Positions 12,346 to 26,608 of a stretch of 64,000 bases of DNA are shown here, piece by piece. Each line of letters opens with the position of its first letter. Positions within the stretch are counted from its first letter, which is position 1. Where the stretch lies: NCBI RefSeq assembly GCF_000151205.2, contig NC_016051.1, positions 1,674,001 through 1,738,000 of the forward strand, given 5' to 3'. The position numbers and the translations under genes were made by a program. This DNA comes from Thermococcus sp. AM4. Its GTDB lineage: Archaea > Methanobacteriota_B > Thermococci > Thermococcales > Thermococcaceae. The notes under the pieces were generated by a model that worked only from the letters and a program-made list of their open reading frames with translations, was not told the DNA's origin and searched no databases.

Positions 12346-12939
12346 TTAGGCGTTTAATATCCAGTCTTTCCTCTCCATTGACTCTTCTGGCTGGGCTGAT
12401 TCCCCCGTTATCCTCGGCAGGTCGTGCTTGATCCAGAGGGCGGTTATGATGTAGTGATAGATTAGGGGTGGGATGGATACCGTGGAGGGTTCGGTTTCAA
12501 GGAAGGCTAACGGCGCCAGAACGGCGATGGAGACCTTCCACAAGCGTATGGCTGGTTTTCGAACGTTTTTAGGGAGAAAGATAACGGTAAAATAGAGGGC
12601 TCCCATAGCGAGGGAAATTGAGGGGAACAACCCGAGGCCCGTCACCCAAGAGATACATGCAAAGAAAACTGCCACTGATGTTCCGATGAGGCCGAATAGG
12701 ATTGTATCCTTGGTTGTGATTGTTTCTCCTTTGATTTTCCACTTTGCCAAAAAGAGTTCCACAATAAAAACCGATGTCGGAAATAAAGCCGAAGCCCTGA
12801 CTAGGGTGACAGGAATCAGCTCTCCAAAGATCAAGATGGTGAGGGACCAGTGATAGGATTTCGTCCGCCATAGAAATAGTAACGAGATAACTAAAAAGAA
12901 ATACAGTGAAACCACCAGGAATGTGTTCAAGTCCACCAT
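12346..12939 (-). CDS. Small multi-spanning membrane protein, family A (candidate immunity protein)
   Basis: 197 residues with about six hydrophobic segments. It belongs to what I call family A of this island. The shared pattern is a hydrophobic N-terminus followed by a lysine/arginine segment (WRTKSYHWSLTILIF here), and a C-terminal ALWIKHDLPRIT-like block. The other copies are at 16908, 17497 and 22642. This copy has an extra hydrophilic tail of about 20 residues after PRIT, unlike the others, which end there. The ATG at 12939 follows GAGGGTGAT; the GTG at 12948 is an alternative. It overlaps nothing and is the last gene of the array. Confidence 0.65.
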   Translation of the reverse strand: MVDLNTFLVVSLYFFLVISLLFLWRTKSYHWSLTILIFGELIPVTLVRASALFPTSVFIVELFLAKWKIKGETITTKDTILFGLIGTSVAVFFACISWVTGLGLFPSISLAMGALYFTVIFLPKNVRKPAIRLWKVSIAVLAPLAFLETEPSTVSIPPLIYHYIITALWIKHDLPRITGESAQPEESMERKDWILNA

Positions 12940-12940
12940 G

Positions 12941-13729
12941 TTAATCACCCTCGGCTGGCATGTTTGGTTGAGTTTTCTCTGTTATTCTTTGCGTATCGTG
13001 AGCAGGGAATGCAACGGCTTCATCCTCTTTCCCCTGGTATCTAGCGCTTTTAGAAAATCCAATCAACGCCAGCAAGACGGTCCATGTAAACGGGACAATA
13101 AAGGTCAGGAGTAGGAAGTCCGCATTGCTTTTTGTATCCACGCTGATTTGCATGTTGATGAGCAGGTATATAAAAACGGGAAAGAGGATAGTCCCCTTGC
13201 CACTTTTGGCATTCTTCGATAATTTGACTATTTTAAGAAGGATCGTAAAGACGGTTAGGTATGCTAGTATAATGAGGAATTTTCCGAATGAAGACATCTG
13301 TGAGTCCTTCAAGAGCTTGTACGTGGCCTCAAATGTGGAAAGTGCAGTCAAAATTATCAGAAACAGCCTTTTCCAGGGGGTTAAGTTTGAAATTGCCTCG
13401 GCAAGGCGGCCAGTCCAGTCCACGTCCCTTAGGTCAAGGTACAACGAAAACCACAGTGCAGAGAGAATTAAAACGAACGGTTTAGCCACTATTGGAACCA
13501 CCGTGACCATCCCAACTCCAAATAAGATCAGAAAGAATAGTCCGGCGAGCAGTTCGCCTTCTTTAGTTATGAAATCTATCGCAGAAACCATTAGGAAAAT
13601 ACCCAACGGCAACGTCCACAGGCCGAGAATGTATCTGTTTGGGGTGTTTTCATGGTATAGGATGAGCGTGACTCCAATCTGAAAAAGGAGAAGGGCAGGA
13701 AGGGATTTTCTCAAGCCCGGGCCTTTCAT
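12941..13729 (-). CDS. Multi-spanning membrane protein of the island, family not assigned
   Basis: 262 residues with about eight hydrophobic segments and a hydrophilic C-terminal tail ending PAEGD. It is the longest membrane protein of the array and I could not pair it confidently with another member. The ATG at 13729 follows AAGGGTGA; the GTG at 13738 is an alternative. Its last codons and stop (GAG GGT GAT TAA) form the ribosome site of the downstream family A gene, so translation is coupled. Its upstream gap of about 110 bp holds a TATA-like CTTAAAAAG, so it may start its own transcript. Confidence 0.6.
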   Translation of the reverse strand: MKGPGLRKSLPALLLFQIGVTLILYHENTPNRYILGLWTLPLGIFLMVSAIDFITKEGELLAGLFFLILFGVGMVTVVPIVAKPFVLILSALWFSLYLDLRDVDWTGRLAEAISNLTPWKRLFLIILTALSTFEATYKLLKDSQMSSFGKFLIILAYLTVFTILLKIVKLSKNAKSGKGTILFPVFIYLLINMQISVDTKSNADFLLLTFIVPFTWTVLLALIGFSKSARYQGKEDEAVAFPAHDTQRITEKTQPNMPAEGD

Positions 13730-13846
13730 TGTGTTCACCCTTCCGCGCTTCGTTGATTACACCATCAAATTGTAACCCACGCACTTTTTAAGTGTTTTGA
13801 ATTGCCTTGGGGGTATAAACAAAGAAGAAATGGGTCCTACTTGTCC
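13730..13846 (-). promoter_or_regulatory. Possible internal promoter in the membrane-protein array
   Basis: 117 bp without a gene. CTTAAAAAG (about 13785-13793, minus strand) is TATA-like and about 60 bp before the next start codon. Confidence 0.35.
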
Positions 13847-14239
13847 CTATTGGCCGTTTCGCTTGTTATCTTCCCGCCGGGACGATCTGAGTGCCCTTAT
13901 CACTGTTCTAAAAAGTTTCTCCCACGTGATGCACCTCCATTCGCGTGCGAGTTTGTATCCCATTGTCCACAGGGAGAACACCGTTGCAAACACGATTAAT
14001 CTGAACGGTATGGAGTATGGTCTGGCGAAGATGATGTACGGACCAGATAGAAGAAGGACAAATACCAGACTGAGGGGCGTACTGTTCTCATCCAGGAGCA
14101 ACAGGAGCGTGACGAACAACAATAATAGGCCCAGGAAGAGTATTTCTCCTATACTAAAAGACCCCCTGGACAGGAGAGTCATGAAAATTAAAGTTGAGAT
14201 GGAAAGAAAGATAATAGAGCGCAGGCATTCCCCTCTCAT
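13847..14239 (-). CDS. Small membrane protein, family B
   Basis: 130 residues, about four hydrophobic segments. It resembles the neighbouring 14271-14618 product along its length: both begin with Met-Arg/Lys, Glu-Cys, Arg-Ser (MRGECLRSIIF here) and share a late LW-x-x-GY motif followed by a Cys. The C-terminal tail is basic. The ATG at 14239 follows GGTGAT. The tandem position of two B members points to local duplication. Membrane location is clear from hydrophobicity; an immunity role is inferred from the locus. Confidence 0.6.
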   Translation of the reverse strand: MRGECLRSIIFLSISTLIFMTLLSRGSFSIGEILFLGLLLLFVTLLLLLDENSTPLSLVFVLLLSGPYIIFARPYSIPFRLIVFATVFSLWTMGYKLAREWRCITWEKLFRTVIRALRSSRREDNKRNGQ

Positions 14240-14270
14240 CCTAATCACCATTCATGTTCGGAACCTTGAG

Positions 14271-14618
14271 TTATAGCTTCTTTAGTATGCCTTTGCTTAT
14301 TAAGCACTTCTCTGCACTTTCATAGCCCGTTTTCCAGAGGTATGGGAGGGTGAGGAGTAAGATAAACCCAAACGCTCTTGAATACGCTTTGGGGTGTATC
14401 ATGTGATGTATTATGATGGGACAGAACAAAATGCAAACAATTATCAACCACAGTGCAGTGCCCCATCCTCCAATTAAGCCCAACATTGCAAGAAATACTG
14501 GCGCTAAAGTTAGGAACACTCTACCTTCGAAGTCGAGGGGCAAACTAAAGAAAAAAACTCCCATCATTGCCGTAGAAACTAAAAAGGAGATGAGTGAACG
14601 CCTGCATTCCTTCATCAT
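14271..14618 (-). CDS. Small membrane protein, family B
   Basis: 115 residues, about four hydrophobic segments, paralogous to the next gene downstream (shared starts MMKECRRSLISF versus MRGECLRSIIF, and LWKTGY versus LWTMGY). The ATG at 14618 follows GGGAGGACGTGAGA; the upstream gene's stop lies inside that leader, so translation is coupled. Nothing suggests an enzyme. Confidence 0.6.
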   Translation of the reverse strand: MMKECRRSLISFLVSTAMMGVFFFSLPLDFEGRVFLTLAPVFLAMLGLIGGWGTALWLIIVCILFCPIIIHHMIHPKAYSRAFGFILLLTLPYLWKTGYESAEKCLISKGILKKL

Positions 14619-14620
14619 TC

Positions 14621-15139
14621 TCACGTCCTCCCGGGTTTTTGGTTCTCGTTAATGAACTCGTTGAACTCTTCAAACATGAGGTATCCCCCAGCCACCAGCG
14701 TTACTGCGGCGATAGCCTCGATCCAGTTTGAAGCACGGATTCCCTCGATAAACGGGTTCATGGAAAAGAACCCAAGGAGTAGGATTCCAAAGTACCTCAA
14801 CTTTGAATCCGAGTTCTGGGTTACTGGTCCCTTGCTTAGACCATAGCGAACCAGTAGCACAAAGCCTTGGAGCGCAAGCAGGATCAGCAGTAAAAGACCT
14901 GCTCCAGTTAGCCCGATAATGAGAACACTGACAAATATTACGGCCAAATTGACCACGAGAAGAGTTCTGGCAAAGTTGGAATGATTCATGCCCCTGTGGT
15001 GTAGCATTCCTAGCATAGCAACCCAAACGTAAAGCACTGAAAGACTCACGCTGGCAAGAGTTAGGGCCACTTTTATGCCCGCGGAAGCATAAAGGAGGAA
15101 AAAGGAGACAAGGTACACAACAACACCTGCCCATCTCAT
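14621..15139 (-). CDS. Small membrane protein, family C (divergent)
   Basis: 172 residues with about five hydrophobic segments. The C-terminal third (IEGIRASNWIEAIAA ... GGYLMFEEF) matches the pattern of family C at 15136 and 15751, in which a GGYLI segment and an acidic residue follow a hydrophobic stretch. The ATG at 15139 overlaps the upstream stop (ATGA) and follows AGAGGGA. A longer reading from 15199 lies inside the upstream gene and is rejected. Confidence 0.58.
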   Translation of the reverse strand: MRWAGVVVYLVSFFLLYASAGIKVALTLASVSLSVLYVWVAMLGMLHHRGMNHSNFARTLLVVNLAVIFVSVLIIGLTGAGLLLLILLALQGFVLLVRYGLSKGPVTQNSDSKLRYFGILLLGFFSMNPFIEGIRASNWIEAIAAVTLVAGGYLMFEEFNEFINENQKPGRT

Positions 15140-15717
15140 TGACGGTCCCTCTTTGAGTTTTCTGTGAAAGTCACTTGGTTTTTCTCCCACCCCAAACATT
15201 CTAACGAATTTTCAAACGCCTTATAAATTAGATAGCCACCCAAGAGAGCCGGAAGGAGAAAAACAAAAACCCATACCGGATTGGAAGCCCTTTGGGCTAT
15301 TGAGATGTCCGCTATCCACTGGAAGAACCATAATCCCCGCACCGTTCGTGGTGGATACTGAAGTTTCTTCCCTATCCTCGACAGTTTCCACTTGAAAACC
15401 AAAACTATGGCAGGGAATGTCATGAAAAGCCCGAACACCTCTGTTATGTTCAAAACGGTATCCCAAGCTCCAAAACTCAACCCTAAAATCAGAAGGCTTA
15501 CAGTGAAGATTCCACCGAGAAAGAGAACAACTCTCCTTTGGAATTCGTTAGCTCTCCCCGAACTCCCGAGAGCCATAAGGCTCAACCATGGAACAAGCAC
15601 TGTCAGATTTGCTGAGAGAACGTAAATTCCTCTAAGGGCTCCAAAATGGGAAATAAGGACAGAAGAAATGAAGAGGGAGGCAACTCCATAGAGCATCATG
15701 CTTTCATGTCTTTTCAT
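15136..15717 (-). CDS. Small membrane protein, family C
   Basis: 193 residues, about five hydrophobic segments. It shares with 15751-16296 a YPP motif, an aromatic FQWI segment and LLPALLGGYLI near the C-terminus. ATG at 15717 follows GAGGGGTCA. It is coupled by a 4-base overlap to the next gene. Three adjacent C members suggest tandem duplication followed by divergence, as expected for proteins under selection to recognise changing partners. Confidence 0.62.
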   Translation of the reverse strand: MKRHESMMLYGVASLFISSVLISHFGALRGIYVLSANLTVLVPWLSLMALGSSGRANEFQRRVVLFLGGIFTVSLLILGLSFGAWDTVLNITEVFGLFMTFPAIVLVFKWKLSRIGKKLQYPPRTVRGLWFFQWIADISIAQRASNPVWVFVFLLPALLGGYLIYKAFENSLECLGWEKNQVTFTENSKRDRQ

Positions 15718-15750
15718 AGTTGACCCCTCTATGGTCTCTCTTAGGTGCCC

Positions 15751-16296
15751 TCAAGTTGCCATACTATCACCTGCACGTTTAGCCTCTATGAATCCGAGGA
15801 TTATCAGGTAACCTCCAATTAGGCCTGGTAGTAAGTACAGAAACACTTTTAGCGGCTCGTCAGACTTAACGGCGAGAATGCCTGTATCAATCCACTGAAA
15901 CACCCAGAAGTACTTTGCATCGGTTGGGGGATAACTGAGTTGTTCCCCACTTCTTTCCCTACTCTTCTTTGCACAATACATGGGAGCAATAAAGAGCAGA
16001 TACCATGCCAAAAATGAGACAATTACCCCGGTTACTTTCTCAAAATCATTGTAGACGAGGGCTATTACTCCCAAGGCGACTACTGACGAGAGGAGAGATG
16101 TCAATATGATGAGCTTGATTAGCAGATTTTTCCCTGTGCCTCTGGACCAGAGGGCTATTGTTCCCCACATGGGGATGAACATCACGTTTATTGCGAACAC
16201 GTACAGCCCGCTTTCAGGCCCTCTGACCTTCACCATAATAAGGGAGGACAAAAGGATAAGAAAAAATCCCGAAAGGAGACTTTTAACGAACCCCAC
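15751..16296 (-). CDS. Small membrane protein, family C
   Basis: 181 residues, about five hydrophobic segments. Matches the 15136 product at YPPTDAKYFWVFQWID and LLPGLIGGYLI. A GTG at 16296 after GAGGTGATC is the likely start; those ribosome-site bases include the stop codon of the upstream gene. A GTG at 16305 is an alternative. Confidence 0.6.
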   Translation of the reverse strand: MGFVKSLLSGFFLILLSSLIMVKVRGPESGLYVFAINVMFIPMWGTIALWSRGTGKNLLIKLIILTSLLSSVVALGVIALVYNDFEKVTGVIVSFLAWYLLFIAPMYCAKKSRERSGEQLSYPPTDAKYFWVFQWIDTGILAVKSDEPLKVFLYLLPGLIGGYLIILGFIEAKRAGDSMAT

Positions 16297-16301
16297 TTGG
16301 A

Positions 16302-16859
16302 TCACCTCGAGCAGCTGCCTCGATACTTTTGTTCTCCCAATCCTTCCATCTCTCTAAACGTGCAGTAACAACCCCACAGTATCCCAGTTGAGACCAAGAG
16401 ACCGAGCACCCATGAACCACCGAAATGAACGCTTCCAATGAATGTTATTGCCGCTATTATCACGACAAACAGCTTTATGTATTTAGCTGTGCTTTCTACC
16501 CTTTTCTTATTCATGTCTGGATTCTGGCATATCATGTTAATCTTGGGTGCGATATGCCCCACGAGCATAGCTGGTCCCGCGAACCATAGGAATGCATAGA
16601 GGGCGTACAAAGAATCTTTGAATCCCCAAATGTACCAATCCAAAATGAAAAAGGAGGATACAAACCCCAGAAAGAGTTTACCCAGCTTCCAAAAAACCTC
16701 TCCTTCGGGTGTTGTCCTGTATCTGAAGTAGCACCACCCGAAGAATAGCGCCACTACTGAAGTTGCCGTGAACAAGGAGAGTTTGAGGTCTACACGTATT
16801 CCGAGAAGAATGATAGAAAAAATGAGGACAGAAATTCCGATGTAGTTTTTACTGGTCAT
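16302..16859 (-). CDS. Small membrane protein, family D
   Basis: 185 residues, about six hydrophobic segments. Family D members here are this one and those at 24130 and 24755. Shared marks are an N-terminal GIxVLIF-type segment, FxGW in the second span, a glycine-proline turn before a basic loop (GPAMLVGHIAPK here), KYIKLF, and a C-terminal GILWGCY-type glycine segment. ATG at 16859 follows GGGGGCG. The two other D genes sit directly after an orphan C-terminal module; this copy has none, and would be an orphan immunity gene under the model. Confidence 0.62.
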   Translation of the reverse strand: MTSKNYIGISVLIFSIILLGIRVDLKLSLFTATSVVALFFGWCYFRYRTTPEGEVFWKLGKLFLGFVSSFFILDWYIWGFKDSLYALYAFLWFAGPAMLVGHIAPKINMICQNPDMNKKRVESTAKYIKLFVVIIAAITFIGSVHFGGSWVLGLLVSTGILWGCYCTFREMEGLGEQKYRGSCSR

Positions 16860-16907
16860 CACGACGCCCCCAGCCAGTTTTGATATCCCTAATGAAAGCT
16901 TTGGACT

Positions 16908-17483
16908 TCACGTTATCTTCGGTCCCTCCGTCATTCTCGGTAAGTCACGCTTGAGCCATAGGATAAAGAGCGCCACGTAAACTATTATAAAGGGGAGAAG
17001 TTGGCTTTGAAGGCCGAACACCTCTATCAACGTCCCCATGGAAAGAAGCACGAACGGAATTTTGGCGTAGTAAAACACCCTCCTGCTCTTTCCGTAGCTT
17101 ATAGCAATGAAAACGTAGAGAAGCCAGTAACCCATCAGAAGCGAGAGGGACCAGCCAGCGCCTGCCCGTTTAAATAAAAACACTAGGAACAAAACCATGA
17201 GATAACCCAGAATCACATCGCCAACACTGCTCTCGTCATCTGAAGATTTCCTGAATGGGCGTTCGTACTGTATGTAAAATAGATAAGCTGGAAGAAGTGC
17301 CAGTAATGAGCCGTACACGAGAGTGCCGAGGATGTCTCCAGTGTGATAAAGGAACGAGGCAAAGATTGAGGAGAACACCAAAAGCGAAAGGGCCCTCTGG
17401 TAAAATCTCGCCTTTAACGCCGTTATAACACTAACAAAGAGGAAAGAGTAGAGGATAAGATACGAGATTGCATCGGTTCCCAT
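16908..17483 (-). CDS. Small membrane protein, family A
   Basis: 191 residues, about six hydrophobic segments. Like other A members it ends in a conserved block (FILWLKRDLPRMTEGPKIT here). It is most similar to the 22642 product: both contain a YERP(F/L) loop, a DV(I)xGYL span, and RRxFYxxKxPxVLLS. That is notable because the 22642 gene is the immediate partner of an orphan module. ATG at 17483 follows GAGGTGGGTGTGAG, bases that begin with the stop of the upstream A gene. Confidence 0.62.
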   Translation of the reverse strand: MGTDAISYLILYSFLFVSVITALKARFYQRALSLLVFSSIFASFLYHTGDILGTLVYGSLLALLPAYLFYIQYERPFRKSSDDESSVGDVILGYLMVLFLVFLFKRAGAGWSLSLLMGYWLLYVFIAISYGKSRRVFYYAKIPFVLLSMGTLIEVFGLQSQLLPFIIVYVALFILWLKRDLPRMTEGPKIT

Positions 17484-17496
17484 GCTCACACCCACC

Positions 17497-18075
17497 TCAT
17501 GTTATTCTTGGAGGTTTTGTCATCCGGGGCAACTCAACTTTCAGCCAGAGAGCAGTCATAAAGTAGTGTAACACAATAACGGGTATCACATATATTGAAA
17601 TGTCAAACTGCTCCACCAAAGCAAGGGGAGCAAGCAACGGATAGGGGAGTTTGAGCAGATAGTAGTATTTCCGATACTTTACATCGGGTGTTTTCTTGAA
17701 TTCGAGGTAAAGAAGACACGCCAGATAAATGCTTCCGTATCCTATGAGCGTTGCCACGATGATTCCAGATCTATAAAATAGCACAAATCCCACCAAGGCC
17801 ACTATTAATGTGATCCAGCTATGACTCCCTTTAACATTTTCCTCGCGTGGGCTGTTGTATTCAACGTCAAAAAACGTCGCAGTTACAAAAGTAAAAATCC
17901 CTACCATGAGAGCTGCCAGGAGAGTATCAACATGGTTGATTGATAGCCCTTTCAAAAAAGAAATGAAGATTTCCCCGAAAATCAAAACGGTTAATGGTCT
18001 GTGGAGTGACTTAGTCTTGAATAACGCGCCCATTGATATTAAAAGGAAAATATAACTGGGATAGATCCAATTCAT
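17497..18075 (-). CDS. Small membrane protein, family A
   Basis: 192 residues, about six hydrophobic segments, C-terminal block LWLKVELPRMTKPPRIT. It forms a tandem pair with the 16908 gene and resembles the 12346 product in its N-terminal KTKSLHRPLTVLIFGE segment. ATG at 18075 follows AAAGGTGATAGACT. A 164-bp noncoding gap upstream probably contains its promoter. Confidence 0.62.
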   Translation of the reverse strand: MNWIYPSYIFLLISMGALFKTKSLHRPLTVLIFGEIFISFLKGLSINHVDTLLAALMVGIFTFVTATFFDVEYNSPREENVKGSHSWITLIVALVGFVLFYRSGIIVATLIGYGSIYLACLLYLEFKKTPDVKYRKYYYLLKLPYPLLAPLALVEQFDISIYVIPVIVLHYFMTALWLKVELPRMTKPPRIT

Positions 18076-18239
18076 AGTCTATCACCTTTATGACTTCAGA
18101 GGGGTCATTACAGGGCCCCTCTTGCTTTTTAATTCTCTTCGCGTTGTACTATCCCATTCCCGGAGAGGATATATTTGGATTTTCTGCCGGTCAGATTCTT
18201 TCCCTCATTAGTGTTCCTGCCTTCCAGCATTAGTAAAAC
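18076..18239 (-). promoter_or_regulatory. Intergenic region with probable promoter and small inverted repeat
   Basis: No gene seen. TATA-like AATTAAAAAG lies near 18125-18134 (minus strand). GAGGGG and CCCCTC flank an 11-base loop at about 18095-18118, between that box and the ribosome site, in a position fit for an operator or a leader hairpin. Confidence 0.4.
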
Positions 18240-18626
18240 TTAGGGAGATGTAGCGCCCTGGCACTTATCCCTCACCCACGGGATTGTAATTCCAATTAAC
18301 CCCGCCACAAAGATAAATATCGAGAGGGAAAACTCAACTGACCTATTGGCAAGGGGATAATTCAAGAGTATTCCAAAGATGGAGTACCAGATGAACAGAT
18401 CGAACAGCTGTCTAACCGACCCCTTGGCGCCCGAGGTGTAGTAATAGCCCATTAAATGTAAAACGAGCCAGTAGGTATGCTTGTCAGGCTCTAATCTTCT
18501 TCCTGTGGTGCATATCATCCACACCACCAGCACTCCCAGAGAGACTCCTATTACGGTTCTGATAGCTTGGAAAACCCCAAAATGAATGCTCTGATACAGT
18601 AAAGAGGAAGGATCAAGGTAAACCAC
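18240..18626 (-). pseudogene. Family E membrane protein, 5' end apparently lost
   Basis: 128 codons from a GTG at 18626 that lies inside the 3' end of the upstream gene. From residue 13 on it aligns with the upstream 18551 product: (I)xFGxxxA..., a GVLLV-type span, an arginine-leucine before a hydrophilic loop, KGxxRQL, and a late aromatic span. The missing first span is encoded in another frame, as the last 27 residues of the upstream gene (LWFTLILPLY). This suggests that a frameshift or small deletion fused the start of this gene onto the end of its neighbour. It may still be translated from GTG but would lack span one. Confidence 0.5.
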
Positions 18627-19069
18627 AACTTCGATAGTTTTCCCGGCTGGTTGTCTTTGTCGGATTCATCACATTTCAAACTTTCCCAGTCCACAGCAAA
18701 GTATAACCACATTGTTCCAATCAAAGTTATAGGCATTATGAAACCCCAGAAGTGCAGCTTTGAGGTGCTACTATCAAATAGTGCAAACGGCAATGTGAAG
18801 AGAATCCAAATCCCCCAAAGTTGCCGTGCTATCCCGCGTTTTCCAGAAAGGAACTCGTGAAGACTATCAGCTCCCAGCCCTGCATACGGTTCTTCGTATG
18901 CCCTGCATTTCAATCTATTGAGAATGCCGTACACAAAAATTACTAAGAGCACGCCAGAACAGGTAAGAACTGCGGACTTAAAGGCATCCCTGTATCCGAA
19001 CTCGATTCCTTCCCAGATGAAAATAATGGTTAGAGGAATGAGACCCAAATAGATTGAACGTCTCTTCAT
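18551..19069 (-). CDS. Small membrane protein, family E, with an apparently extended C-terminus
   Basis: 172 residues, about four or five hydrophobic segments. Residues 1-145 match the downstream paralogue. The last 27 residues, beginning KLSKLWFTLILPLY, look like the N-terminal span of that paralogue read through a frame change rather than a native tail. ATG at 19069 follows GGAGGAATTTAG. Function is unknown; it is part of the candidate immunity array. Confidence 0.58.
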   Translation of the reverse strand: MKRRSIYLGLIPLTIIFIWEGIEFGYRDAFKSAVLTCSGVLLVIFVYGILNRLKCRAYEEPYAGLGADSLHEFLSGKRGIARQLWGIWILFTLPFALFDSSTSKLHFWGFIMPITLIGTMWLYFAVDWESLKCDESDKDNQPGKLSKLWFTLILPLYCIRAFILGFSKLSEP

Positions 19070-19151
19070 CTAAATTCCTCCTTCATGTGAGTTCAAGTAT
19101 CAACGGTTTGAACCATCCGTTCCACATGCTTAAAGCTTACAGTCCCTTCAC
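19070..19151 (-). promoter_or_regulatory. Short intergenic gap with TATA-like palindrome
   Basis: 82 bp. GCTTTAAGC near 19129-19138 reads as TATA-like on the minus strand and could start a transcript for the two family E genes. Confidence 0.35.
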
Positions 19152-19670
19152 TTACTTTTCCTTGTCTCCAGCGTTTTTAAACTTCCTGAACTCTGTAGAG
19201 AGGACGTAGATAACGTATATCACAGTTAGAACAACTGCTTGTATTCCGAAAATTATATGGTACCATGCCACGATGGAGAATGGGGGGAGTAGCACTATTA
19301 ATAGTGCCTTTGCTGGGCTCTCCTTTAGTTTTAGATTCTCCGTTAACTCCTTCAGAAGAACGAGCACGCTGTCGATCTTAAGCAACGGCAGGAACAGCCA
19401 TGCCAGCCACAGAATCGTTGCGAGACCACCTAAAAACTCCATCCCTGCTATCACTGCTGCTGTCGACAGCCATAATGGAGCAAAGACCTTTACTTCAAAT
19501 CCAAAACGCTCATCCTCCAACCACGGGAGCATTATAACCAGTGCCGTTAAATACAGGTTCAGCTGAAGCAATGGATAGGCAGTTTTTGAGTAGCTGTCTC
19601 CGGTGGAAAATAAATAAACCAAGGATAGCAGGCCGATAGCGGTTGGAGTGTACCTGAGCAGTCCTTTCAC
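19152..19670 (-). CDS. Small membrane protein coupled to an orphan C-terminal module (candidate immunity)
   Basis: 172 residues, about five hydrophobic segments. It begins with GTG three bases after the stop of the 19674 module, whose last codons GGG GGA TGA act as ribosome site. There is a weak resemblance to family C in the middle (aromatic span, LPWL, long hydrophobic stretch), not enough for assignment. Under the model it is the cognate immunity protein of the adjacent module. Confidence 0.6.
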   Translation of the reverse strand: MKGLLRYTPTAIGLLSLVYLFSTGDSYSKTAYPLLQLNLYLTALVIMLPWLEDERFGFEVKVFAPLWLSTAAVIAGMEFLGGLATILWLAWLFLPLLKIDSVLVLLKELTENLKLKESPAKALLIVLLPPFSIVAWYHIIFGIQAVVLTVIYVIYVLSTEFRKFKNAGDKEK

Positions 19671-19673
19671 ACA

Positions 19674-20315
19674 TCATCCCCCCACGACGTCGTTGTTATC
19701 ATTACCCTTGTCTGGATTCGGTCCAAAGAGCCAGTCATGAAGATCTGCCCCTATAAGGAGAATCGAGAGTATGCCACCGGCTCTTTTTGCCATTTTTGTT
19801 CCGAGTTTTCCGCTTCCTTTTAGGAATATATAAGCTACTGCGGTGTATTTTCCAGCGTCGATGTCATCTTTGATGTCGTTGTAAAAGTTTTTAACTTCAT
19901 TAATAATTCCTCTATCTTTAACCATCACTAAGGTCTCCGAAGTTACATTGTTATCAAAGATGAACCTGACCTTATATGTGTATCCCGCAAACCTGTCCTT
20001 GTATGAACTGAGAAATCTGTCTACGGGGTCCCACGGACGTTCCTCGAAGTAATAGTTAGCAAAGTCGTCATCCAGCCTGAATTCTAGTTTGACTGTCCTA
20101 GAGGGAGTTAGTGTAGGTCCTTTCACCAGATTTACACTCGATAAATCAACATCCCACACCTTTTTTGTCCCAAACCATACCTCTTTTAGTGTTAGTGAAC
20201 TGAGAGTAGTCTTTGGATTCCACGAAGCCACACAGGTAATTTTGTCCCCTGGGAAAACCTCCAACGGACAGTCCAAATTAGGTGATACTATCGAACCCCT
20301 CACTCCCACCTTCAC
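19674..20315 (-). CDS. Orphan C-terminal module O2 of the island's large protein
   Basis: A start-poor coding segment of 213 residues from GTG 20315; the frame stays open upstream to about 20375. Those first codons encode LFIDNTDGKPNGNGEEHW, matching residues 643-660 of the 882-residue protein at 27207-29855. What follows is different in sequence but has the same plan: a beta-rich domain with a Cys pair (LDCP and ITCV), then a hydrophobic glycine-containing region (GSGKLGTKMAKRAGGILSIL), and a tail NDNNDVVGG shared with other modules. It looks like an alternative tip that could be joined to the large protein by recombination in the shared block. Expression on its own is doubtful, although ribosome-site-like bases precede the GTG. 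Confidence 0.6.
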   Translation of the reverse strand: MKVGVRGSIVSPNLDCPLEVFPGDKITCVASWNPKTTLSSLTLKEVWFGTKKVWDVDLSSVNLVKGPTLTPSRTVKLEFRLDDDFANYYFEERPWDPVDRFLSSYKDRFAGYTYKVRFIFDNNVTSETLVMVKDRGIINEVKNFYNDIKDDIDAGKYTAVAYIFLKGSGKLGTKMAKRAGGILSILLIGADLHDWLFGPNPDKGNDNNDVVGG

Positions 20316-20375
20316 CTCGTTCCAGTGTTCTTCTCCGTTGCCGTTGGGCTTGCCGTCCGTGTTGTCGATAAAGAG
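20316..20375 (-). repeat. Homology block copy 2 (60 bp) shared with the large gene
   Basis: About 60 bp nearly identical to 27872-27931 (region encoding LFIDNTDGKPNGNGEEHW). Homology stops abruptly at 20375, where the sequence switches to a truncated membrane-protein gene. This marks a recombination breakpoint. Confidence 0.75.
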
Positions 20376-20847
20376 CCCAAGATAAGCATTCCTGAGTATA
20401 GTATGCTCACAAGTTGTAAATACAGACTACCCAGGTTGATCCCGTCGATTATAATTGCAAACGTTGACGGTAAAAATGTAAACATAAAAGTATGTACCTT
20501 CTTAGTTGGGGCAATCTTGAATCTACTTAGGACGACGCTCCACATTGCCAATGTTTTGTCTGCTAAGAGCCAGGGAATAAACATAATAAGGAGCCACAAG
20601 ATTGGATTTTCAAGACATGCCGCTGCAAAGTTTGTGATAGCAATCCAGTGGGGGATAAAAGTTGTTATTTCAAAAAATTCTCCCAGTCACTGGACCAAAA
20701 CAATATTCCAAAGGCCAAGCTCCAAAATATGAGGGAGAGCAAGGTGTAGTAAAATTGGCTGTTTGTACGTTCTCCCCACCAAAAAGTAAAGATGATTGAA
20801 AAAACAGAAACAATAATCACTGCACCTCTTTTGATTGCATTCCTCAT
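20376..20847 (-). pseudogene. Broken membrane-protein gene, frameshifted and 3'-truncated
   Basis: ATG at 20847 opens a hydrophobic protein that stops at codon 60 just after SDWENF. One extra base in the run of six A (20672-20677 on the plus strand) restores a frame that continues with EITTFIPHWIA and further spans to about 20376. There it breaks at the shared homology block. The original protein was thus a multi-spanning membrane protein of over 150 residues, possibly like the 25967 product (both have a LLADK/MLIDE-type loop before a long span). The ATG overlaps the stop of a short remnant tail. Read as an immunity gene destroyed when module O2 recombined in. Confidence 0.6.
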
Positions 20848-20888
20848 AGATCATCCCCTACCACGTTGTTGTCATTCTCCCATATGGA
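20848..20888 (-). other. Remnant of a module tail between two membrane-protein genes
   Basis: Directly after the stop of the 20889 gene, in the same frame, the DNA encodes WENDNNVVGDDL and a stop. This matches the NDNNDVVGG ends of modules O2 and the large protein. It now supplies the ribosome site of the following broken gene. Best read as a scar of a lost module. Confidence 0.5.
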
Positions 20889-21596
20889 TCACTCATGTGG
20901 TAATGTTTCATCTCTTTTCACAATACTTAATTCAAGTATTATCCAAAGTAGAACCAAATCCAGTAAAAGAAACGACCATCTAGCTCCATCAGCAAAAACC
21001 ATAACAACCAATGCATGATACGCTACTGGAGAAAGGAACGTAATACTAGACATTCTCCCTGCTTTTCTTTCGATTGTTACTGCTTCCTCATCGAAAAGTT
21101 CCTTTAAGAGCCCATATAGAACTCCCCCTGCTCCAACTGCGAAGGAAAGCCAGGCCCAGCCCCCAAATCTCAGCGTTAGCCCAAGCATGAACATTAGTGC
21201 CACTATCATGTTGATAAATACTGTATATTTCCTGTACACTGGGCAAATGAGGATAAAGATGCCACCGTACAGGAGTAGGTAGCCGAGAAGCACTGGCCCA
21301 ACTCCTTTAGACCCTCCAACCAGTGGAGTGAGGGCCAGCAGGGGAGCCAAACTGATGTAGCTAGAGAGTATTTTGAGCTTTAGTATTTCGAACGGATAGG
21401 AACGCTTGAAAAGGAGAGCACTTAAAAGCGACGGCACGAGCAGTGCAAAAAAGATGAAGTAGCCACTAACAATACCATCCCAGTAAATCCGTTCCTGGTA
21501 GTTATCTGAATATATAAAAAAGCCTAACGATGTAACAAACATATATCCTAAAATATAAAAGAGCAGGGAAAAGGTATAGTGATCACGCTCTCCCAT
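20889..21596 (-). CDS. Multi-spanning membrane protein coupled to module O1 (candidate immunity)
   Basis: 235 residues, about seven hydrophobic segments, with an acidic loop (KELFDEEAVTIERKAGR) in the second half. ATG at 21596 lies four bases after the stop of module O1, whose final GGG GGG TGA is the ribosome site. I could not assign it to families A-E. Its position as immediate partner of a module argues for cognate immunity. Confidence 0.62.
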   Translation of the reverse strand: MGERDHYTFSLLFYILGYMFVTSLGFFIYSDNYQERIYWDGIVSGYFIFFALLVPSLLSALLFKRSYPFEILKLKILSSYISLAPLLALTPLVGGSKGVGPVLLGYLLLYGGIFILICPVYRKYTVFINMIVALMFMLGLTLRFGGWAWLSFAVGAGGVLYGLLKELFDEEAVTIERKAGRMSSITFLSPVAYHALVVMVFADGARWSFLLLDLVLLWIILELSIVKRDETLPHE

Positions 21597-21600
21597 TTTC

Positions 21601-22607
21601 TCACCCCCCGGTCACGTCGTTTCCGTCAGACCCATTATCTGGTGTAATCCCTGTCTTGTGTTTGTAACGAAGATACACTTTTTCAATTAAAAGCTTAAAC
21701 CAGTTCAGGGATTCTGAGTCCACCAAAGCCTGTCCTGCAACCCCACTAGCCCCACCACTAAGGGCACCAGCCAGGATGCCCCCTCCACCAAAGTACGCAA
21801 CTGCCATACCAATTGTTGCCCCCGATATTGCTGCGGTTCCATAGATATATATCGTCTGAACAATGGAATTTGCTTCGGTTATTTCCACAATATCACTTGC
21901 TGGTGGTAGGTTTGTGAAGTATACTTTAACTAGATAGGGAGAGTATTCTGGAAGCTTGTAGTTAAAAAATGGATCTCCAAACAATAAAGTGGCTATCCCA
22001 TTTACGGTAAAAGTCAGTGACACATTGTTGACTCCATGAGGGGGCACTGTTATTGAGACTTGGTCAATTGTCGCAGCTACTGTATCTGTGCCATTCCAAA
22101 TGACATTGTTTCCAAATACGACTTTTGTTATTCTTGTGGAAAAGACCTTGTTTCCGGTATTCCAGACTTTTATCTTGCACTGAGTCGGTCTTTCATCATT
22201 TTGTGGCACGCTCTGAGGGCAGTCTAGAGTTGCATATACCGAGCTTATTGGTTTCACTTCTACCTTCACCTTCCTCCATTTTTCTTCTCCGTTGCCGTTG
22301 GGTTTTCCGTCCGTGTTGTCGATGAAGAGTTTAAACGTGTGGTTTGCGACTCCATAGAGGGTGTACGAAAAGCTAAAACTCTTTTCTCCCCTGGCTGGAA
22401 TAGTGTATACCCCACTGCCCCCCATCTTAACTATAACGGCTCCATCCTCATCCTCGATGAATCCACGCACGTCCAGCTTATCAGGCCTGTAATTCCTGAC
22501 CTTCACCGTGAAGTACACTCTCCCACCACCCGTCAACTCCCTGGGAACGCCTCCAACTCAACGGCAAACTGCTGATTGGCTTTTCCAATATTAATTTCCC
22601 GCTTCAT
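21601..22607 (-). pseudogene. Orphan module O1 with its own start, one-base frameshift
   Basis: An ATG at 22607 with ribosome site GAGGAGG opens a frame (MKREINIGKANQQFAVEL...) that hits a stop at about 22536. Adding one base near 22540-22546 turns it into FPRELTGGGRVYFTVKVRNY, matching WPRTLDGGGKVWFTVKVRNY of the large protein. From there to the end (to 21601) the frame is open for 311 codons. Residues equivalent to 576-660 of the large protein are almost identical. Then comes a divergent beta domain with the Cys pair (LDCP, TQCK), a glycine-rich segment (ISGATIGMAVAYFGGGG, ILAGALSGGASG) and the tail NDVTGG. It looks like a short carrier plus tip, now frame-disrupted or awaiting recombination. 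Confidence 0.7.
22270..22530 (-). repeat. Homology block copy 1 (about 240 bp) shared with the large gene
   Basis: Near-identical to about 27870-28130, with only scattered mismatches, while DNA on both sides differs strongly between the two loci. It encodes the last conserved CARDB-like domain. Such an island of identity is what ongoing recombination or gene conversion would leave. Confidence 0.85.
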
Positions 22608-22641
22608 GAGTCCTCCTCATTCTTCTGTTCATTGAGCACAA

Positions 22642-23208
22642 TTAAGTTATCCTTGGAGGCCTCCATATTCTCGGGAGATCGAACTTCAGCCATAGGACGA
22701 AAACAACCAAGTAAGCAATGAGGAAAGGTATTAGTTCCCTTTGAAATCCAAACTCCTCGACTAAGGCACCCCACGATAAGACAACATAGGGAACTTTAAG
22801 GAGATAAAAGGCTCTTCTATTTTCCCTGTGGTCTATTAGTAGCATTAAATGGAACACCCAATAGCTAGCTAGAAGGGAAAGAATCCAACCAGCACCATGA
22901 GACTTAAGAAGCACTAGTATGAAAAATCCTAATAGGTACCCAAATATAACGTCACTAACACTTTCATTCTCTTCACGTTTAGAAAGGGGCCTTTCATATT
23001 CCAAGTAGAACAAATAAGAGAACAATGCAGATAGTGCTAACCACGAAATAACTGCGATATATGTGTTGTTGTATTCACTCCCAGCTATGAATGTTGATGA
23101 AAATACCAAAATTGCCAGTCCTAAATGGCAAGATTTTGTTTTAGCGCTTATAGCCATCACAAAAACAAGAGAAAGATAGAGGAACAACGTTGAAATTTCA
23201 ACAACCAT
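22642..23208 (-). CDS. Small membrane protein, family A, coupled to module O3 (candidate immunity)
   Basis: 188 residues, about six hydrophobic segments, C-terminal block LWLKFDLPRIWRPPRIT. Very like the 16908 product in the YERPLSKRE-type loop and the RRAFYLLKVPYVVLS span. The ATG at 23208 follows AGGTGGTGA, which is also the last codons (Arg-Trp-stop) of module O3. Under the model this is the O3 immunity protein, and the A copies elsewhere are orphan immunities to O3-like tips. Confidence 0.65.
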   Translation of the reverse strand: MVVEISTLFLYLSLVFVMAISAKTKSCHLGLAILVFSSTFIAGSEYNNTYIAVISWLALSALFSYLFYLEYERPLSKREENESVSDVIFGYLLGFFILVLLKSHGAGWILSLLASYWVFHLMLLIDHRENRRAFYLLKVPYVVLSWGALVEEFGFQRELIPFLIAYLVVFVLWLKFDLPRIWRPPRIT

Positions 23209-23214
23209 TTTAAA

Positions 23215-24140
23215 TCACCACCTCTTTGTTATTCCCCTAATGAATCCTTGGGCCATCTTAAGAATCTCCCATGCTGTTTTTGCACGTTTGCCCGCTTTTG
23301 CTGCAATTATCACTTCTTTTAATGATTCCCCACCAGCAATAAATGAAACAATAAATGAACCAATGTCAATAACAACTACACCATACACGGTGTTGCTTGT
23401 CTTCAATATCACATGACTCCTTACGGTGTAATTGTAACTCTTAGGAGCGTTGTTCATGAACTCGACCAAGTGCAACCTCATCGTAACTGGCAAGTCATAG
23501 TAACCGTAAACCCAGTAATTGGCAAGGGCTCTGAAATCACTAATCGAAGCGCTGAACTTTACGTGAAGATAACCGCTCCTGTGAGCAGGAAAAGTCGTCG
23601 TCGACTTATCTGATATAACCGCCCTACTGTGGCTCATTGGGAAATCCACCAAAACACTAGAGTCTTTGAGCTGAACACCAACCTGCTGATTATGAGGATT
23701 AACAAAGCCAATTTTACAATCAACAGTTCCGCCATAGGTAGCGGTAATAGAATTAACTTGCAAAAACAAATCTCCGCATGAAACATTCGTAATCTCTAAG
23801 TAGGGATTACCATTAACATCTACGTACGCTGATGTCATGGTGAGTCCTCCGATTTTCAGGTAGAGAGTGGTGTTCTGGTATAGTGGGCCGATAGCTGTGA
23901 GTATGTGTGCTTTCTTGTGAGCGTAGATTTTTAAGTATCCGTCGCCGGTGATGGTGTAGTTTTGGGTTCTCCATGACTGTCCCCTCGGCCACCATACGTT
24001 TCCGGTGTCATCAAGAGCTCGAACGGCCAGGTTTGAGCGTAGTCGGCTGTATTTTCAACCGTAATGTAGACCATCGTCCAATCGCCCTGATCAATCTCCC
24101 CCGGAACAACCTCAAGCCATGAAACGGCATTAGGATTGGG
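23215..24140 (-). pseudogene. Orphan module O3 with 5' truncation and one-base frameshift
   Basis: The continuous 3' part runs from an ATG at 23838 (207 codons), but coding similarity in style extends upstream. One frame reads AVSWLEVVPGEIDQGDW ... WPFEL, then after a missing base near 24008-24018 a second frame reads DDTGNVWWPRGQSWRTQNY and joins the 23838 frame. The 5' end starts abruptly inside the stop region of the preceding gene with no start codon. The beta domain has a Cys pair (NVSCG, VDCKI). The end is a hydrophobic then basic helix region (GVVVIDIGSFIVSFIAGG, AAKAGKRAKTAWEILKMAQG), with KRW instead of the NDVxGG tail. Its carrier part is of a different type from the large protein here. 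Confidence 0.6.
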
Positions 24141-24657
24141 GAGTGTCTGTCTTTTCCAGTCCCCATAACGTTAGGTAACTGCCGCCCAGTATTCCGATGG
24201 GGATTGCCAGGGTGAGTAACCATGATCTGGTGGAATGATAGATACCAAGGATTAGATCGAATGTGATTATAAAGAGGAAGAGTTTTTGGTATTTGGCGGC
24301 TAGTTTTGCTCCTTTCTTTTTTATTTTGTATCGTGTTTTAAATGCTAAAAACCATCCGAATGCGGCTGGTCCGCTAAGGTATGCAGCCGTATAGATCATT
24401 CCCAATGCGGGTTTGATGCCATGGCGGTGGTAGATGATTATCACGAGTATGATGATTAGGGTTAGGAGTGTTCTGTTTAGTTTTATGAACTTTGTCTCTG
24501 TGGGGTTCTCCGCGTTTTTGAGGAGGCTCCATCCGAGGAAGATGGATAGGATTGCAATTAGTATTTCTAATGCTATTTTTCCGCTCACCAGTACCCCGAG
24601 GGCGGCAAAGGAAAAAATAAGGAGGGAAACTCCGATTCCAAGCTCGCTATTTTTCAT
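24130..24657 (-). CDS. Small membrane protein, family D
   Basis: 175 residues, about six hydrophobic segments: GIGVSLLIF, FLGWSLL, SGPAAFGWFLAFK, KYQKLFLFI and GILGGSYLTL match the other D members at 16302 and 24755. ATG at 24657 follows AGGGTGG. Tandem with the next D gene; under the model one is cognate to module O4 and the other an additional immunity. Confidence 0.64.
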   Translation of the reverse strand: MKNSELGIGVSLLIFSFAALGVLVSGKIALEILIAILSIFLGWSLLKNAENPTETKFIKLNRTLLTLIIILVIIIYHRHGIKPALGMIYTAAYLSGPAAFGWFLAFKTRYKIKKKGAKLAAKYQKLFLFIITFDLILGIYHSTRSWLLTLAIPIGILGGSYLTLWGLEKTDTPQS

Positions 24658-24663
24658 CACGGC

Positions 24664-24754
24664 CACCCTACTCCCTTGTGAAATAGATAACTAGCTTCGA
24701 AATTCGTGAAAAGGCCAACCTTTGTCCAAACTTCAGGCACAACCATTTCCCTTA
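24664..24754 (-). other. Short open stretch between two family D genes, possible remnant
   Basis: A frame starting ATG near 24763 encodes about 33 residues ending FHKGVGWP, and its last bases form the ribosome site of the following gene. It could be a remnant module tail like the two NDNNV scars. There is no other support. Confidence 0.25.
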
Positions 24755-25288
24755 TCATCCCAGCTCTTCCATATCTCCTGCTGTTCTATTAATGTTTTCT
24801 ATTATTTCTGAAAGCAGAAAGTACCCTCCACAGAGCACACATGTTGAATCTACTGTGGCTAAAAACAATAAGTTGGTATCGTGATTAAGGAGAACAATAA
24901 AAAACGAAAACGCCACTGTAATAATCAGCGCTTTGTAGTATCTAAGCGATGTAGAAATCCCTCCGCTATTCCACTTGGAAGCCAAATAACCCATGAGAAA
25001 GCCCGGACTGCTGAGGGAGAGAATCACGTATAACTGGGATATTATAAATCCCTGGCCGTAAACAACGTAACCGACACCAAAAAGGAAACTCTCCACCATA
25101 AAGAAAACCTGCCATACCCTTGAGCTTCTCTGTCTTAATTTGGATAACACAAAGGACCATCCAAGGAACAGGGAGAAAAGAAACTCTGCAATGACTAAAA
25201 AGTACCTAAAACCAATCACTATCCATACAGTAAAAAGAGGAAAGGCAAGAAGGAGAACTCCAAGACTAATCCTTAATCTAGCGTCCAT
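24755..25288 (-). CDS. Small membrane protein, family D, next to module O4 (candidate immunity)
   Basis: 177 residues, about six hydrophobic segments (LGVLLLAF, FLGWSFV, SSPGFLMGYLASK, RYYKALIITV, GGYFLLSEI), aligned with the other D genes. ATG at 25288 is about 27 bases after the stop of module O4, with GGGGGTG as ribosome site. An upstream TTG at 25318 in the same frame is less likely. Confidence 0.64.
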   Translation of the reverse strand: MDARLRISLGVLLLAFPLFTVWIVIGFRYFLVIAEFLFSLFLGWSFVLSKLRQRSSRVWQVFFMVESFLFGVGYVVYGQGFIISQLYVILSLSSPGFLMGYLASKWNSGGISTSLRYYKALIITVAFSFFIVLLNHDTNLLFLATVDSTCVLCGGYFLLSEIIENINRTAGDMEELG

Positions 25289-25314: not shown

Positions 25315-25963
25315 TCAAGGTATTCCCAATATGTCATGGAGAACGTAACCTCCAACAAAGTTTGTAACGAGTCCAAACACGGCTCCTACAATGGCTCCAG
25401 GCACTGTACCAATGCCTGGTAGGACAGCGTTTCCGATTGCCGCACCTATAATGGCATCTGTGGCCACATTGGCAATCAGGTCCGTGGTTATATCTTCTGC
25501 TACTCTGTCTCCATCAGTGACTATTTTAACTTCTGTGTGTGCTGTGTAACCTAGATACCACTCTTTTCCTTGGGAATCTATGACTGCGGGTTTGTTGTTG
25601 ACATAAACAGTGAAGCTTGCTTGAACTGGAACATTTGCATCATCCAGTTCTCCAAGTTTAATTACTTTACCCAATACACCACTTGAAGCAATGGTATCAT
25701 GGAACTCAAGCTTAATTTCTCCAATGTCTCTTGGTGGTACAGTGTGCGTAATTATAGTCTTAGTGGGCTCGATAGTTAAATCCTTTGTACTCTGTGTTTT
25801 GAGGACACGTGCATCCATAGTCACATTTGTGATGTTCCATTCGACGTCTGTGGGGTTTGTGAAGTATACCTTCGCATTTCATGTCTAAGACTAAGTTGCC
25901 CTTCTCCGCGGATAGCTTCATGTCATGATGTTTGGAAATATAAATGGCACAAGGAATATCCAT
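25315..25963 (-). pseudogene. Orphan module O4 with glycine-rich end, one-base frameshift
   Basis: ATG at 25963 (ribosome site GGAGATGA, three bases after the stop of the gene before) starts MDIPCAIYISKHHDMKLSAE. The frame breaks near 25877-25879: removing one A from the AAA run joins it to AKVYFTNPTDVEWNITNVT and onward to the stop at 25315. The first part is a small LEA14/WHy-like beta domain. The last 45 residues form a strong glycine-zipper-like hydrophobic segment (DAIIGAAIGNAVLPGIG, AIVGAVFGLVTNFVGGY), which resembles pore-forming or bacteriocin membrane segments. There is no tail motif. Length with the base corrected is about 215 residues. The start is genuine-looking, so this one may be a stand-alone short protein rather than a tip. 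Confidence 0.6.
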
Positions 25964-25966
25964 TTC

Positions 25967-26488
25967 TCATCTCCTTTTTACTGTTAGTTTATACCACCAC
26001 CATAGCAGGAGGGAGTACGGAATTACGTAGGGGGACAACGTAAGCAGTCCGATAACTAAAATTTGAATCCCCACTAAAATTTCTGGGGTTTTGTTTCTGG
26101 ATATTTCTGGTGAGATGCGTTTGGAAATGTTCTCGTCTATTAGCATCCATATCACAAAAAGGCCAGTAACTCCGAGGTACTCGTGACCGTTAAGCAAAAG
26201 CAAGAGAACAATGGGCGGTACATAGGAAAGTGAGATAGCACTCGCTAAGTTTAGAGGTTTATATGGAAACAATCTATGCCAAAGAGCGAATCCCGATGCC
26301 ATAGCCCACAATAGTATGGACATGTAAGCTACTCGAATATCTGTTTGGTTTCCATACTTGATGGCTGCTATAAAGGATATCCACGCTATTGCCCCAAAGC
26401 CAATTCCCCTGATGCCCTCTATAATAGTGCCAATCCCCACTACGGCCAATACAAATAAAAGGAGGAAAAGATCAATAAACTCCATCAT
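25967..26488 (-). CDS. Small membrane protein after a module-tail remnant (candidate immunity)
   Basis: 173 residues, about six hydrophobic segments, with a short charged loop IDENISKRISPEISRNK in the middle. Not assignable to A-E, possibly related to the broken 20376-20847 gene. ATG at 26488 follows GTGGGGGTATGA, which is the 3' end of a remnant module tail. It probably once followed a module now lost. Confidence 0.6.
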   Translation of the reverse strand: MMEFIDLFLLLFVLAVVGIGTIIEGIRGIGFGAIAWISFIAAIKYGNQTDIRVAYMSILLWAMASGFALWHRLFPYKPLNLASAISLSYVPPIVLLLLLNGHEYLGVTGLFVIWMLIDENISKRISPEISRNKTPEILVGIQILVIGLLTLSPYVIPYSLLLWWWYKLTVKRR

Positions 26489-26495
26489 TTTTCAT

Positions 26496-26608
26496 ACCCC
26501 CACTACTACATTGTTATCATTTTCTCGTGGGAAATGATTGTCGCCTTTCACGGTCTCCTCCAATATCCATTGAAGGTCGCTTTCATGTTTTGTCTCCTCG
26601 GGAATAGT
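26496..26608 (-). other. Remnant of a module C-terminal tail
   Basis: After the stop of the 26609 gene, and in the same frame, about 37 codons read IPEETKHESDLQWILEE and then HFPRENDNNVVVGV-stop. The end matches the NDNNDVVGG tail of O2. No start codon or beta domain is left. It is most simply a scar of a displaced module. Confidence 0.5.

What the first reader, a model, noticed from the sequence alone, without database searches (positions are those of the whole stretch)
12346..25288. At least five paralogous families of small membrane proteins in one array
By eye: A (12346, 16908, 17497, 22642; C-terminal LPRxxxxPxIT), B (13847, 14271), C (14621, 15136, 15751; GGYL), D (16302, 24130, 24755; FxGW and glycine-proline turn) and E (18240, 18551). 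Members are scattered and tandem. A member of A and of D sits next to a module, while other copies have none. That is the pattern of orphan immunity genes collected against rivals' toxins.
Basis: partly seen in the sequence, partly recalled or inferred. Interest (0 to 1): 0.75.

Follow-up and report, generated by a model that had tools for sequence, protein, structure and literature searches.

The report
Orphan immunity array in VARTIG island
In a heat-loving archaeon, a run of small membrane-protein genes looks like a collected set of antidotes to rivals' toxins, because relatives of nearly every gene sit directly behind one particular toxin-like module in other species.

Summary
The array is real and is a VARTIG island of a Thermococcus, a hypervariable Ig-domain gene module published in 2021 with function unknown. 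It is almost certainly one of that paper's two founding islands: 25 genes, matching its locus-tag range. The gene directly behind each variable C-terminal tail (median gap 6 bp) belongs to a membrane family specific to that tail: 182 of 387 within-cluster pairs match, against at most 29 in 5,000 shuffles, with much weaker linkage at the +2 and +3 genes. Tails and partner families co-diverge. All window families except B occur directly behind a tail elsewhere. Window copies mostly resemble genes of other species more than each other, and sampled orphans are under purifying selection. A dead tail remnant lies before an intact cognate gene. The large effector gene lost its export N-terminus through a 528-bp deletion, and no intact N-terminus exists in this genome, so the island looks immunity-only. 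DNA repeats about 650 bp before the stop codon suggest how tails are swapped. Tails are glycine-rich and moderately hydrophobic, and partners are polytopic, so I infer membrane-acting toxins. Toxicity itself is untested.

The parts
27207..29879 (-). Large VARTIG effector gene (Ig-like repeats, glycine-zipper tail ending DNNSVNGG), 5'-truncated: start, signal peptide and about 150 codons deleted at the 29879/29880 junction
26609..27202 (-). F72, putative cognate immunity (polytopic) of the large protein's tail
26522..26587 (-). Remnant of a decayed tail of the type that pairs with F01
25967..26488 (-). F01, putative immunity retained behind the decayed tail
25315..25818 (-). Orphan C-terminal module, Gly-zipper tail type T04
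24755..25288 (-). Family D (F60), directly behind the T04 module; six-helix membrane model
24130..24666 (-). Family D (F60), second copy
23215..23838 (-). Orphan C-terminal module, tail type T16
22642..23208 (-). Family A (F04), directly behind the T16 module; 99% identical to a copy in the nearest relative (L033)
21601..22536 (-). Orphan C-terminal module; starts with DNA 94.7% identical to the large gene
22269..22512 (-). Recombination-anchor repeat, partner of 27868-28112
27868..28112 (-). Recombination-anchor repeat inside the large gene, ending 661 nt before its stop
20306..20375 (-). Partial third copy of the anchor repeat (87%) just upstream of module 19674
20889..21596 (-). F61, putative cognate immunity of module 21601
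19674..20309 (-). Orphan C-terminal module ending DNNDVVGG
19152..19670 (-). F16, putative cognate immunity of module 19674
18551..19069 (-). Family E (F03) orphan; cognate tails of type T03 in other species
18240..18626 (-). Family E (F03) orphan, divergent subfamily
17497..18075 (-). Family A (F04) orphan
16908..17483 (-). Family A (F04) orphan
16302..16859 (-). Family D (F60) orphan
15751..16296 (-). Family C (F07) orphan; 93% identical to a copy that sits directly behind a T04 tail in L033
15136..15717 (-). Family C (F07) orphan
14621..15139 (-). F18 orphan, same superfamily as C and D; cognate tails of T04 subtype elsewhere
14271..14618 (-). Family B (F49) orphan; no intact tail partner found
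13847..14239 (-). Family B (F49) orphan; no intact tail partner found
12941..13729 (-). F25 orphan; cognate tails of type T07 in other species
12346..12939 (-). Family A (F04) orphan, most divergent copy, last gene of the island

Best explanation
This is a VARTIG island working like a polymorphic toxin locus. A large secreted Ig-domain protein carries an exchangeable C-terminal tail that is a membrane-acting toxin, and the gene directly behind each tail encodes a polytopic membrane immunity protein specific for it. Recombination through near-identical Ig-coding DNA upstream of the tail swaps tails. Old tails are displaced, decay or vanish, while their immunity genes stay in a growing 3' array that protects against neighbours still using those tails. 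In this genome the effector has lost its export N-terminus, so the window now appears to be an immunity-only island. Shown: tail-family pairing, co-divergence, orphans with cognate tails in other species, dead tails before intact partners, purifying selection on sampled genes, anchor repeats, the 5' deletion. Inferred: toxicity, membrane action, protection, delivery.
For: Next-gene family is tail-specific: 182/387 matching pairs versus at most 29 in 5,000 shuffles, no family in more than one of the 21 tail clusters; +2 gene 18/186 (shuffle maximum 15), +3 gene 5/64. Tail and partner co-diverge in 6 groups (rho 0.43-0.84, P 0.0002-0.03), more strongly than the upstream Ig does in the groups where both could be measured, though only slightly so in the T01 core group. 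All window families but B follow a tail elsewhere. 40/54 decayed tails precede a cognate gene versus at most 9 in shuffles, one in the window at 26522-26587. 128 of 285 family members are orphans. Orphans are mostly closer to other species' genes than to each other, with dN/dS 0.15-0.41 for seven window orphans tested. Families stay in VARTIG islands. Repeats join large gene and modules in 20 of 36 loci, ending about 650 nt before the stop. Partner families are polytopic and tails more hydrophobic and Gly-rich than the Ig region; confident six-helix model of 24755. No intact effector N-terminus in the genome.
Against: No tail passes a curated toxin-domain cut-off; glycine-zipper and class II bacteriocin hits are sub-threshold and partly compositional. 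Only about 27% of tails reach the strict hydrophobicity cut-off. Structure prediction of a tail failed (pLDDT 30). Family B has no intact tail partner. Same-cluster pairs partly share ancestry, so shuffles overstate independence. No experiment exists.
Confidence: 0.72

Rival explanations
1. The membrane protein is not an antidote but a dedicated partner of its tail, for example a membrane anchor, export partner or surface receptor in an adhesion or self-recognition system (the MHC-like or complement-like hypotheses of the VARTIG paper).
For: It would also give tail-specific pairing and co-divergence; Ig-like and CARDB domains are common in adhesins (PMC8416519).
Against: Nearly half of all partner genes have no tail beside them; dead tails sit before intact partners; this genome keeps the array with no exportable large protein. 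A tail's partner should be useless without the tail.
Confidence: 0.17
2. The array is a recombination graveyard: leftovers of module exchange with no present function.
For: Several modules and large genes are broken; gene content varies strongly between islands.
Against: The membrane-protein ORFs in the window are open and the sampled window orphans show dN/dS of 0.15-0.41 against relatives; a similar gene order F03-F03-F60-F07-F07-F18-F04 is kept in another genome (L101).
Confidence: 0.07
3. Immunity array as proposed, but the tails act inside the cell or on the envelope by an enzymatic or receptor-binding mechanism rather than by damaging the membrane.
For: Many tails are only moderately hydrophobic; no pore-forming domain is recognised.
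Against: Partner families are predicted polytopic membrane proteins, one artefact aside; cytoplasmic toxins usually have soluble antidotes (general knowledge). No nuclease or other enzyme signature was found here or in PMC8416519.
Confidence: 0.2

Closest known systems
VARTIG islands of Thermococcales (Makarova et al. 2021, PMC8416519)
   Same: Same system and very likely the same locus: two islands in Thermococcus sp. AM4, tags RS07620-RS07720 (21 genes) and RS09285-RS09405 (25 genes); the window has 25 ORFs and the genome a second island. Large Ig protein, small Ig modules, membrane proteins, DNNxxxGG end.
   Different: The paper left function open among three hypotheses, noted pairing as a trend with two examples, saw no toxin and no recombination within loci. 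Here pairing is quantified, orphans are matched to cognate tails, decayed tails and intra-locus repeats are found, and a membrane-toxin reading is proposed.
Vibrio cholerae T6SS orphan immunity arrays (PMC5361080)
   Same: Orphans in a 3' array, closer to other strains' genes than to each other, homologous upstream anchor, displaced effector remnants.
   Different: No T6SS here; the carrier is a secreted Ig protein with a signal peptide; the array sits in an archaeon.
CDI ionophore toxins with polymorphic CdiI (PMC11630599)
   Same: Exchangeable C-terminal membrane-acting toxins with highly divergent, specific cognate immunity proteins.
   Different: No CdiA/CdiB; tails are short, of some 20 types, and ionophore activity is untested.
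Staphylococcus TspA/TsaI and EsxX (PMC9484751, PMC12744356)
   Same: Membrane-depolarising toxins (EsxX with a glycine zipper) and strings of non-identical immunity genes.
   Different: T7SS delivery in firmicutes; no sequence relation looked for or seen.

Membership tests
VARTIG | Large multi-Ig (arCOG07710-like) protein at the 5' end of the operon | tested here: met
   CARDB above the Pfam cut-off and relatives in about half of Thermococcaceae genomes; arCOG assignment itself not run
[quoted passage not shown]
   21601, 19674 and 23215 by profile; 25315 matches C-termini of large proteins elsewhere
VARTIG | C-terminal D[ND]NxxxG[GD] motif on many members | tested here: met
   DNNSVNGG (27207), DNNDVVGG (19674), GNDVTGG variant (21601)
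VARTIG | Signal peptide on the large protein | tested here: not met
   Deleted in this copy by a 528-bp deletion; present as a hydrophobic N-terminus in relatives. The paper itself predicts it for only 19 of 30 members, so this is a lesion of this copy, not a failure of membership
VARTIG | Restricted to Thermococcales | tested here: met
   C/D superfamily: 16 of 115 genomes of the phylum, all Thermococcaceae
Polymorphic toxin system | Variable C-terminal domains on a conserved carrier, with orphan C-terminal cassettes | tested here: met
Polymorphic toxin system | Dedicated immunity gene directly behind each C-terminal domain | tested here: met
   Genetic pairing only; protection untested
Polymorphic toxin system | Recognisable toxin domain | tested here: inconclusive
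   Only sub-threshold Gly-zipper and bacteriocin IIc hits
Polymorphic toxin system | Toxic activity and specific neutralisation | not testable with these tools
   Needs expression experiments

The most novel reading that the evidence does not exclude
VARTIG is an archaeal polymorphic toxin system whose roughly 20 tail types all act on membranes and are neutralised by as many distinct polytopic immunity families. Thermococcus strains keep immunity-only islands as a memory of past and neighbouring toxins after losing the weapon.
Probability: 0.55. Interest if true: 0.8.

Novelty: already known. Interest (0 to 1): 0.6.

Why it matters
The function of VARTIG has been open since 2021 among three very different ideas. 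Specific tail-partner pairs, orphans with identified cognates and dead effectors with living partners turn the question into a direct bench test, and favour inter-archaeal warfare over adhesion or complement-like immunity. It would give archaea a membrane-toxin arms race comparable to bacterial CDI and T6SS arrays. The system and very likely this locus are already described, hence the novelty label; the functional evidence is what is new.

Tried and rejected
AlphaFold model of a T04 tail module with three sequences: mean pLDDT 30, not used. Pfam, NCBIfam and PADLOC gave no curated-level name for any membrane protein; PADLOC hits to LeoB (25315) and a desaturase model (10756) are judged compositional or generic. 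Transporter or local tandem-duplication explanations were rejected on context and identity. Programmed frameshifting in the large gene, suggested by breaks near one spot in three genomes, was rejected: the lesions differ in kind and place. No Rfam family or tRNA lies in the island.

Full report
What is there. The window lies in a closed 2,086,428-base genome. From 30.0 kb down to 12.3 kb, all on the minus strand, runs one operon-like island: a large Ig-domain gene (27207-29879), four small modules that resemble the C-termini of such proteins (25315, 23215, 21601, 19674), and 19 small membrane-protein genes, plus one doubtful 95-aa ORF at 20312. This is a VARTIG island as described by Makarova et al. 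2021 (PMC8416519). That paper's founding case is Thermococcus sp. AM4 with two islands of 21 and 25 locus tags. The window island holds 25 ORFs and a second island lies at 1.39-1.41 Mb of the same genome.

The observation.

Testing the immunity idea. VARTIG genes were found in 49 of 94 Thermococcaceae genomes (51 with an N-terminal profile). I fetched 69 island stretches, called genes with a codon model of my own, clustered the proteins and clustered the last 90 residues (last 10 masked) of 181 VARTIG C-termini. The next gene lies within 150 bp in 122 of 166 non-redundant cases, at a median distance of 6 bp. In the 21 tail clusters with at least two pairs (109 pairs), 182 of 387 within-cluster pairs share the next-gene family, against a shuffled mean of 12 and maximum of 29. 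None of these families appears in two of the 21 clusters; three families (F04, F11, F22) also follow one further unclustered tail each. Where a tail cluster has several families (for example F07, F18 and F60 behind T04 tails) the tails look like distinct subtypes by eye. The link fades at the second gene (18/186; shuffle mean 4.5, maximum 15) and third (5/64), so it is a two-gene unit and not block inheritance. Within six groups, tail distance and partner distance correlate. In five of them the upstream Ig region could be compared, and it correlates more weakly with the partner, though it is nearly as strong in the T01 core group.

Decoding the array. Seen from other genomes, the window orphans are partners of known tails: E with T03; C, 14621 and D with T04; F25 with T07; A with T16; F01 with a T01 subtype. 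For E, C, 14621, F25 and F01 no intact cognate tail is in the window. B (F49) has no intact partner; in L083 and L050 it lies just behind a decayed T07-type tail, which hints at its cognate. The best relative of most window genes lies in another genome (90-99% for three genes against L033, 57-79% for most others, 33-49% for 12346, the two B genes, 12941 and 25967), while the best copy inside the window is at most 45% identical. For 25967 the best relative is in the second island of the same genome, and 16302 and 24130 had no outside match in the set. This is collection, not local duplication. Seven window orphans compared with their nearest relatives show dN/dS of 0.15-0.41. These are pairwise estimates, some against partners that are not orphans.

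Dead weapons, living antidotes. Decayed or uncalled tail remnants have a cognate next gene in 40 of 54 cases (shuffle maximum 9); some of these may be frameshifted or mis-called rather than dead. One is in the window: 26522-26587 preserves ...LQWILEETVKGDNHFPRENDNNVV directly before the intact F01 gene. The large gene itself has lost its start, signal peptide and about 150 codons by a clean 528-bp deletion at 29879/29880 relative to L033, whose own copy carries an in-frame stop near its start. An N-terminal profile finds no intact copy anywhere in the window's genome. The window species therefore seems to hold immunity arrays without an exportable VARTIG effector.

How tails are exchanged. The VARTIG paper reported no sign of recombination inside loci. 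Here a 245-bp stretch of the large gene is 94.7% identical to the start of module 21601, and a third partial copy precedes module 19674. Such repeats of at least 50 bp and 80% identity join the large gene and a downstream module in 20 of 36 loci, and they end a median of 655 and 646 nt before the two stops. As a control, 10 of 46 modules have their best match in their own locus's large gene, against about 1 expected; the other 36 match another locus best, so exchange between genomes is also indicated. These are plausible anchors for tail swapping, as in the displacement model for V. cholerae arrays (PMC5361080).

Why membrane toxins. The families directly behind tails are predicted polytopic (one weak exception judged an artefact), and tails are more hydrophobic and Gly-rich than the Ig region before them (simple hydropathy). 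Some show sub-threshold glycine-zipper or bacteriocin IIc similarity. A confident AlphaFold model of 24755 is a six-helix bundle with no PDB match. This would explain why the earlier search for nuclease toxins found none. It is inference.

Context check. Families A, B, C/D and E were searched in 94 genomes, C/D also in the wider phylum. Nearly all hits lie in fetched VARTIG islands. The exceptions were inspected: a contig with the order tail-F129-F03-F03-F60-F07-F07-F18-F04, close to the window's; a lone intact A gene in one genome and a decayed one in another, at a site bordered by gene families that also flank VARTIG islands; and contig ends. One hit genome (G053, 53% complete) has no detected VARTIG.

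Verdict. The locus is known; the function was not.

Noticed in passing
G000:C1:1388000-1406500 (L032): Second VARTIG island of the same genome, with its own long orphan array (F46 F08 F19 F08 F85 F01 F01 F08 F10 F05 F01 F08) and large genes that also lack the conserved N-terminus.
   Followed up: partly
window 29879-29880: Clean 528-bp deletion relative to L033 removing start and signal peptide of the large gene; L033's copy has an in-frame TAG instead, so the two orthologous effectors carry different lesions.
   Followed up: yes
window 20600-20892: Probable decayed tail-immunity pair: a DNNVVGD remnant right behind 20889 followed by a broken hydrophobic reading frame that may include the 95-aa ORF at 20312.
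   Followed up: partly
L060, L069: Large VARTIG genes broken near the same conserved stretch (ALEKWKW), one by a nonsense change and one by a lengthened A run.
   Followed up: partly
L104:11536-12297 (G057:C50) and G049:C4:16783-17172 (L105): A lone family A gene, and a decayed one in another genome, in the same gene neighbourhood, bordered by families that also flank VARTIG islands elsewhere; no module is beside them.
   Followed up: partly
window 31682-32758: ORF that looks like an IS605-type TnpB, close to the island's upstream edge; seen by eye, no Pfam scan run (PADLOC gave nothing).
   Followed up: no
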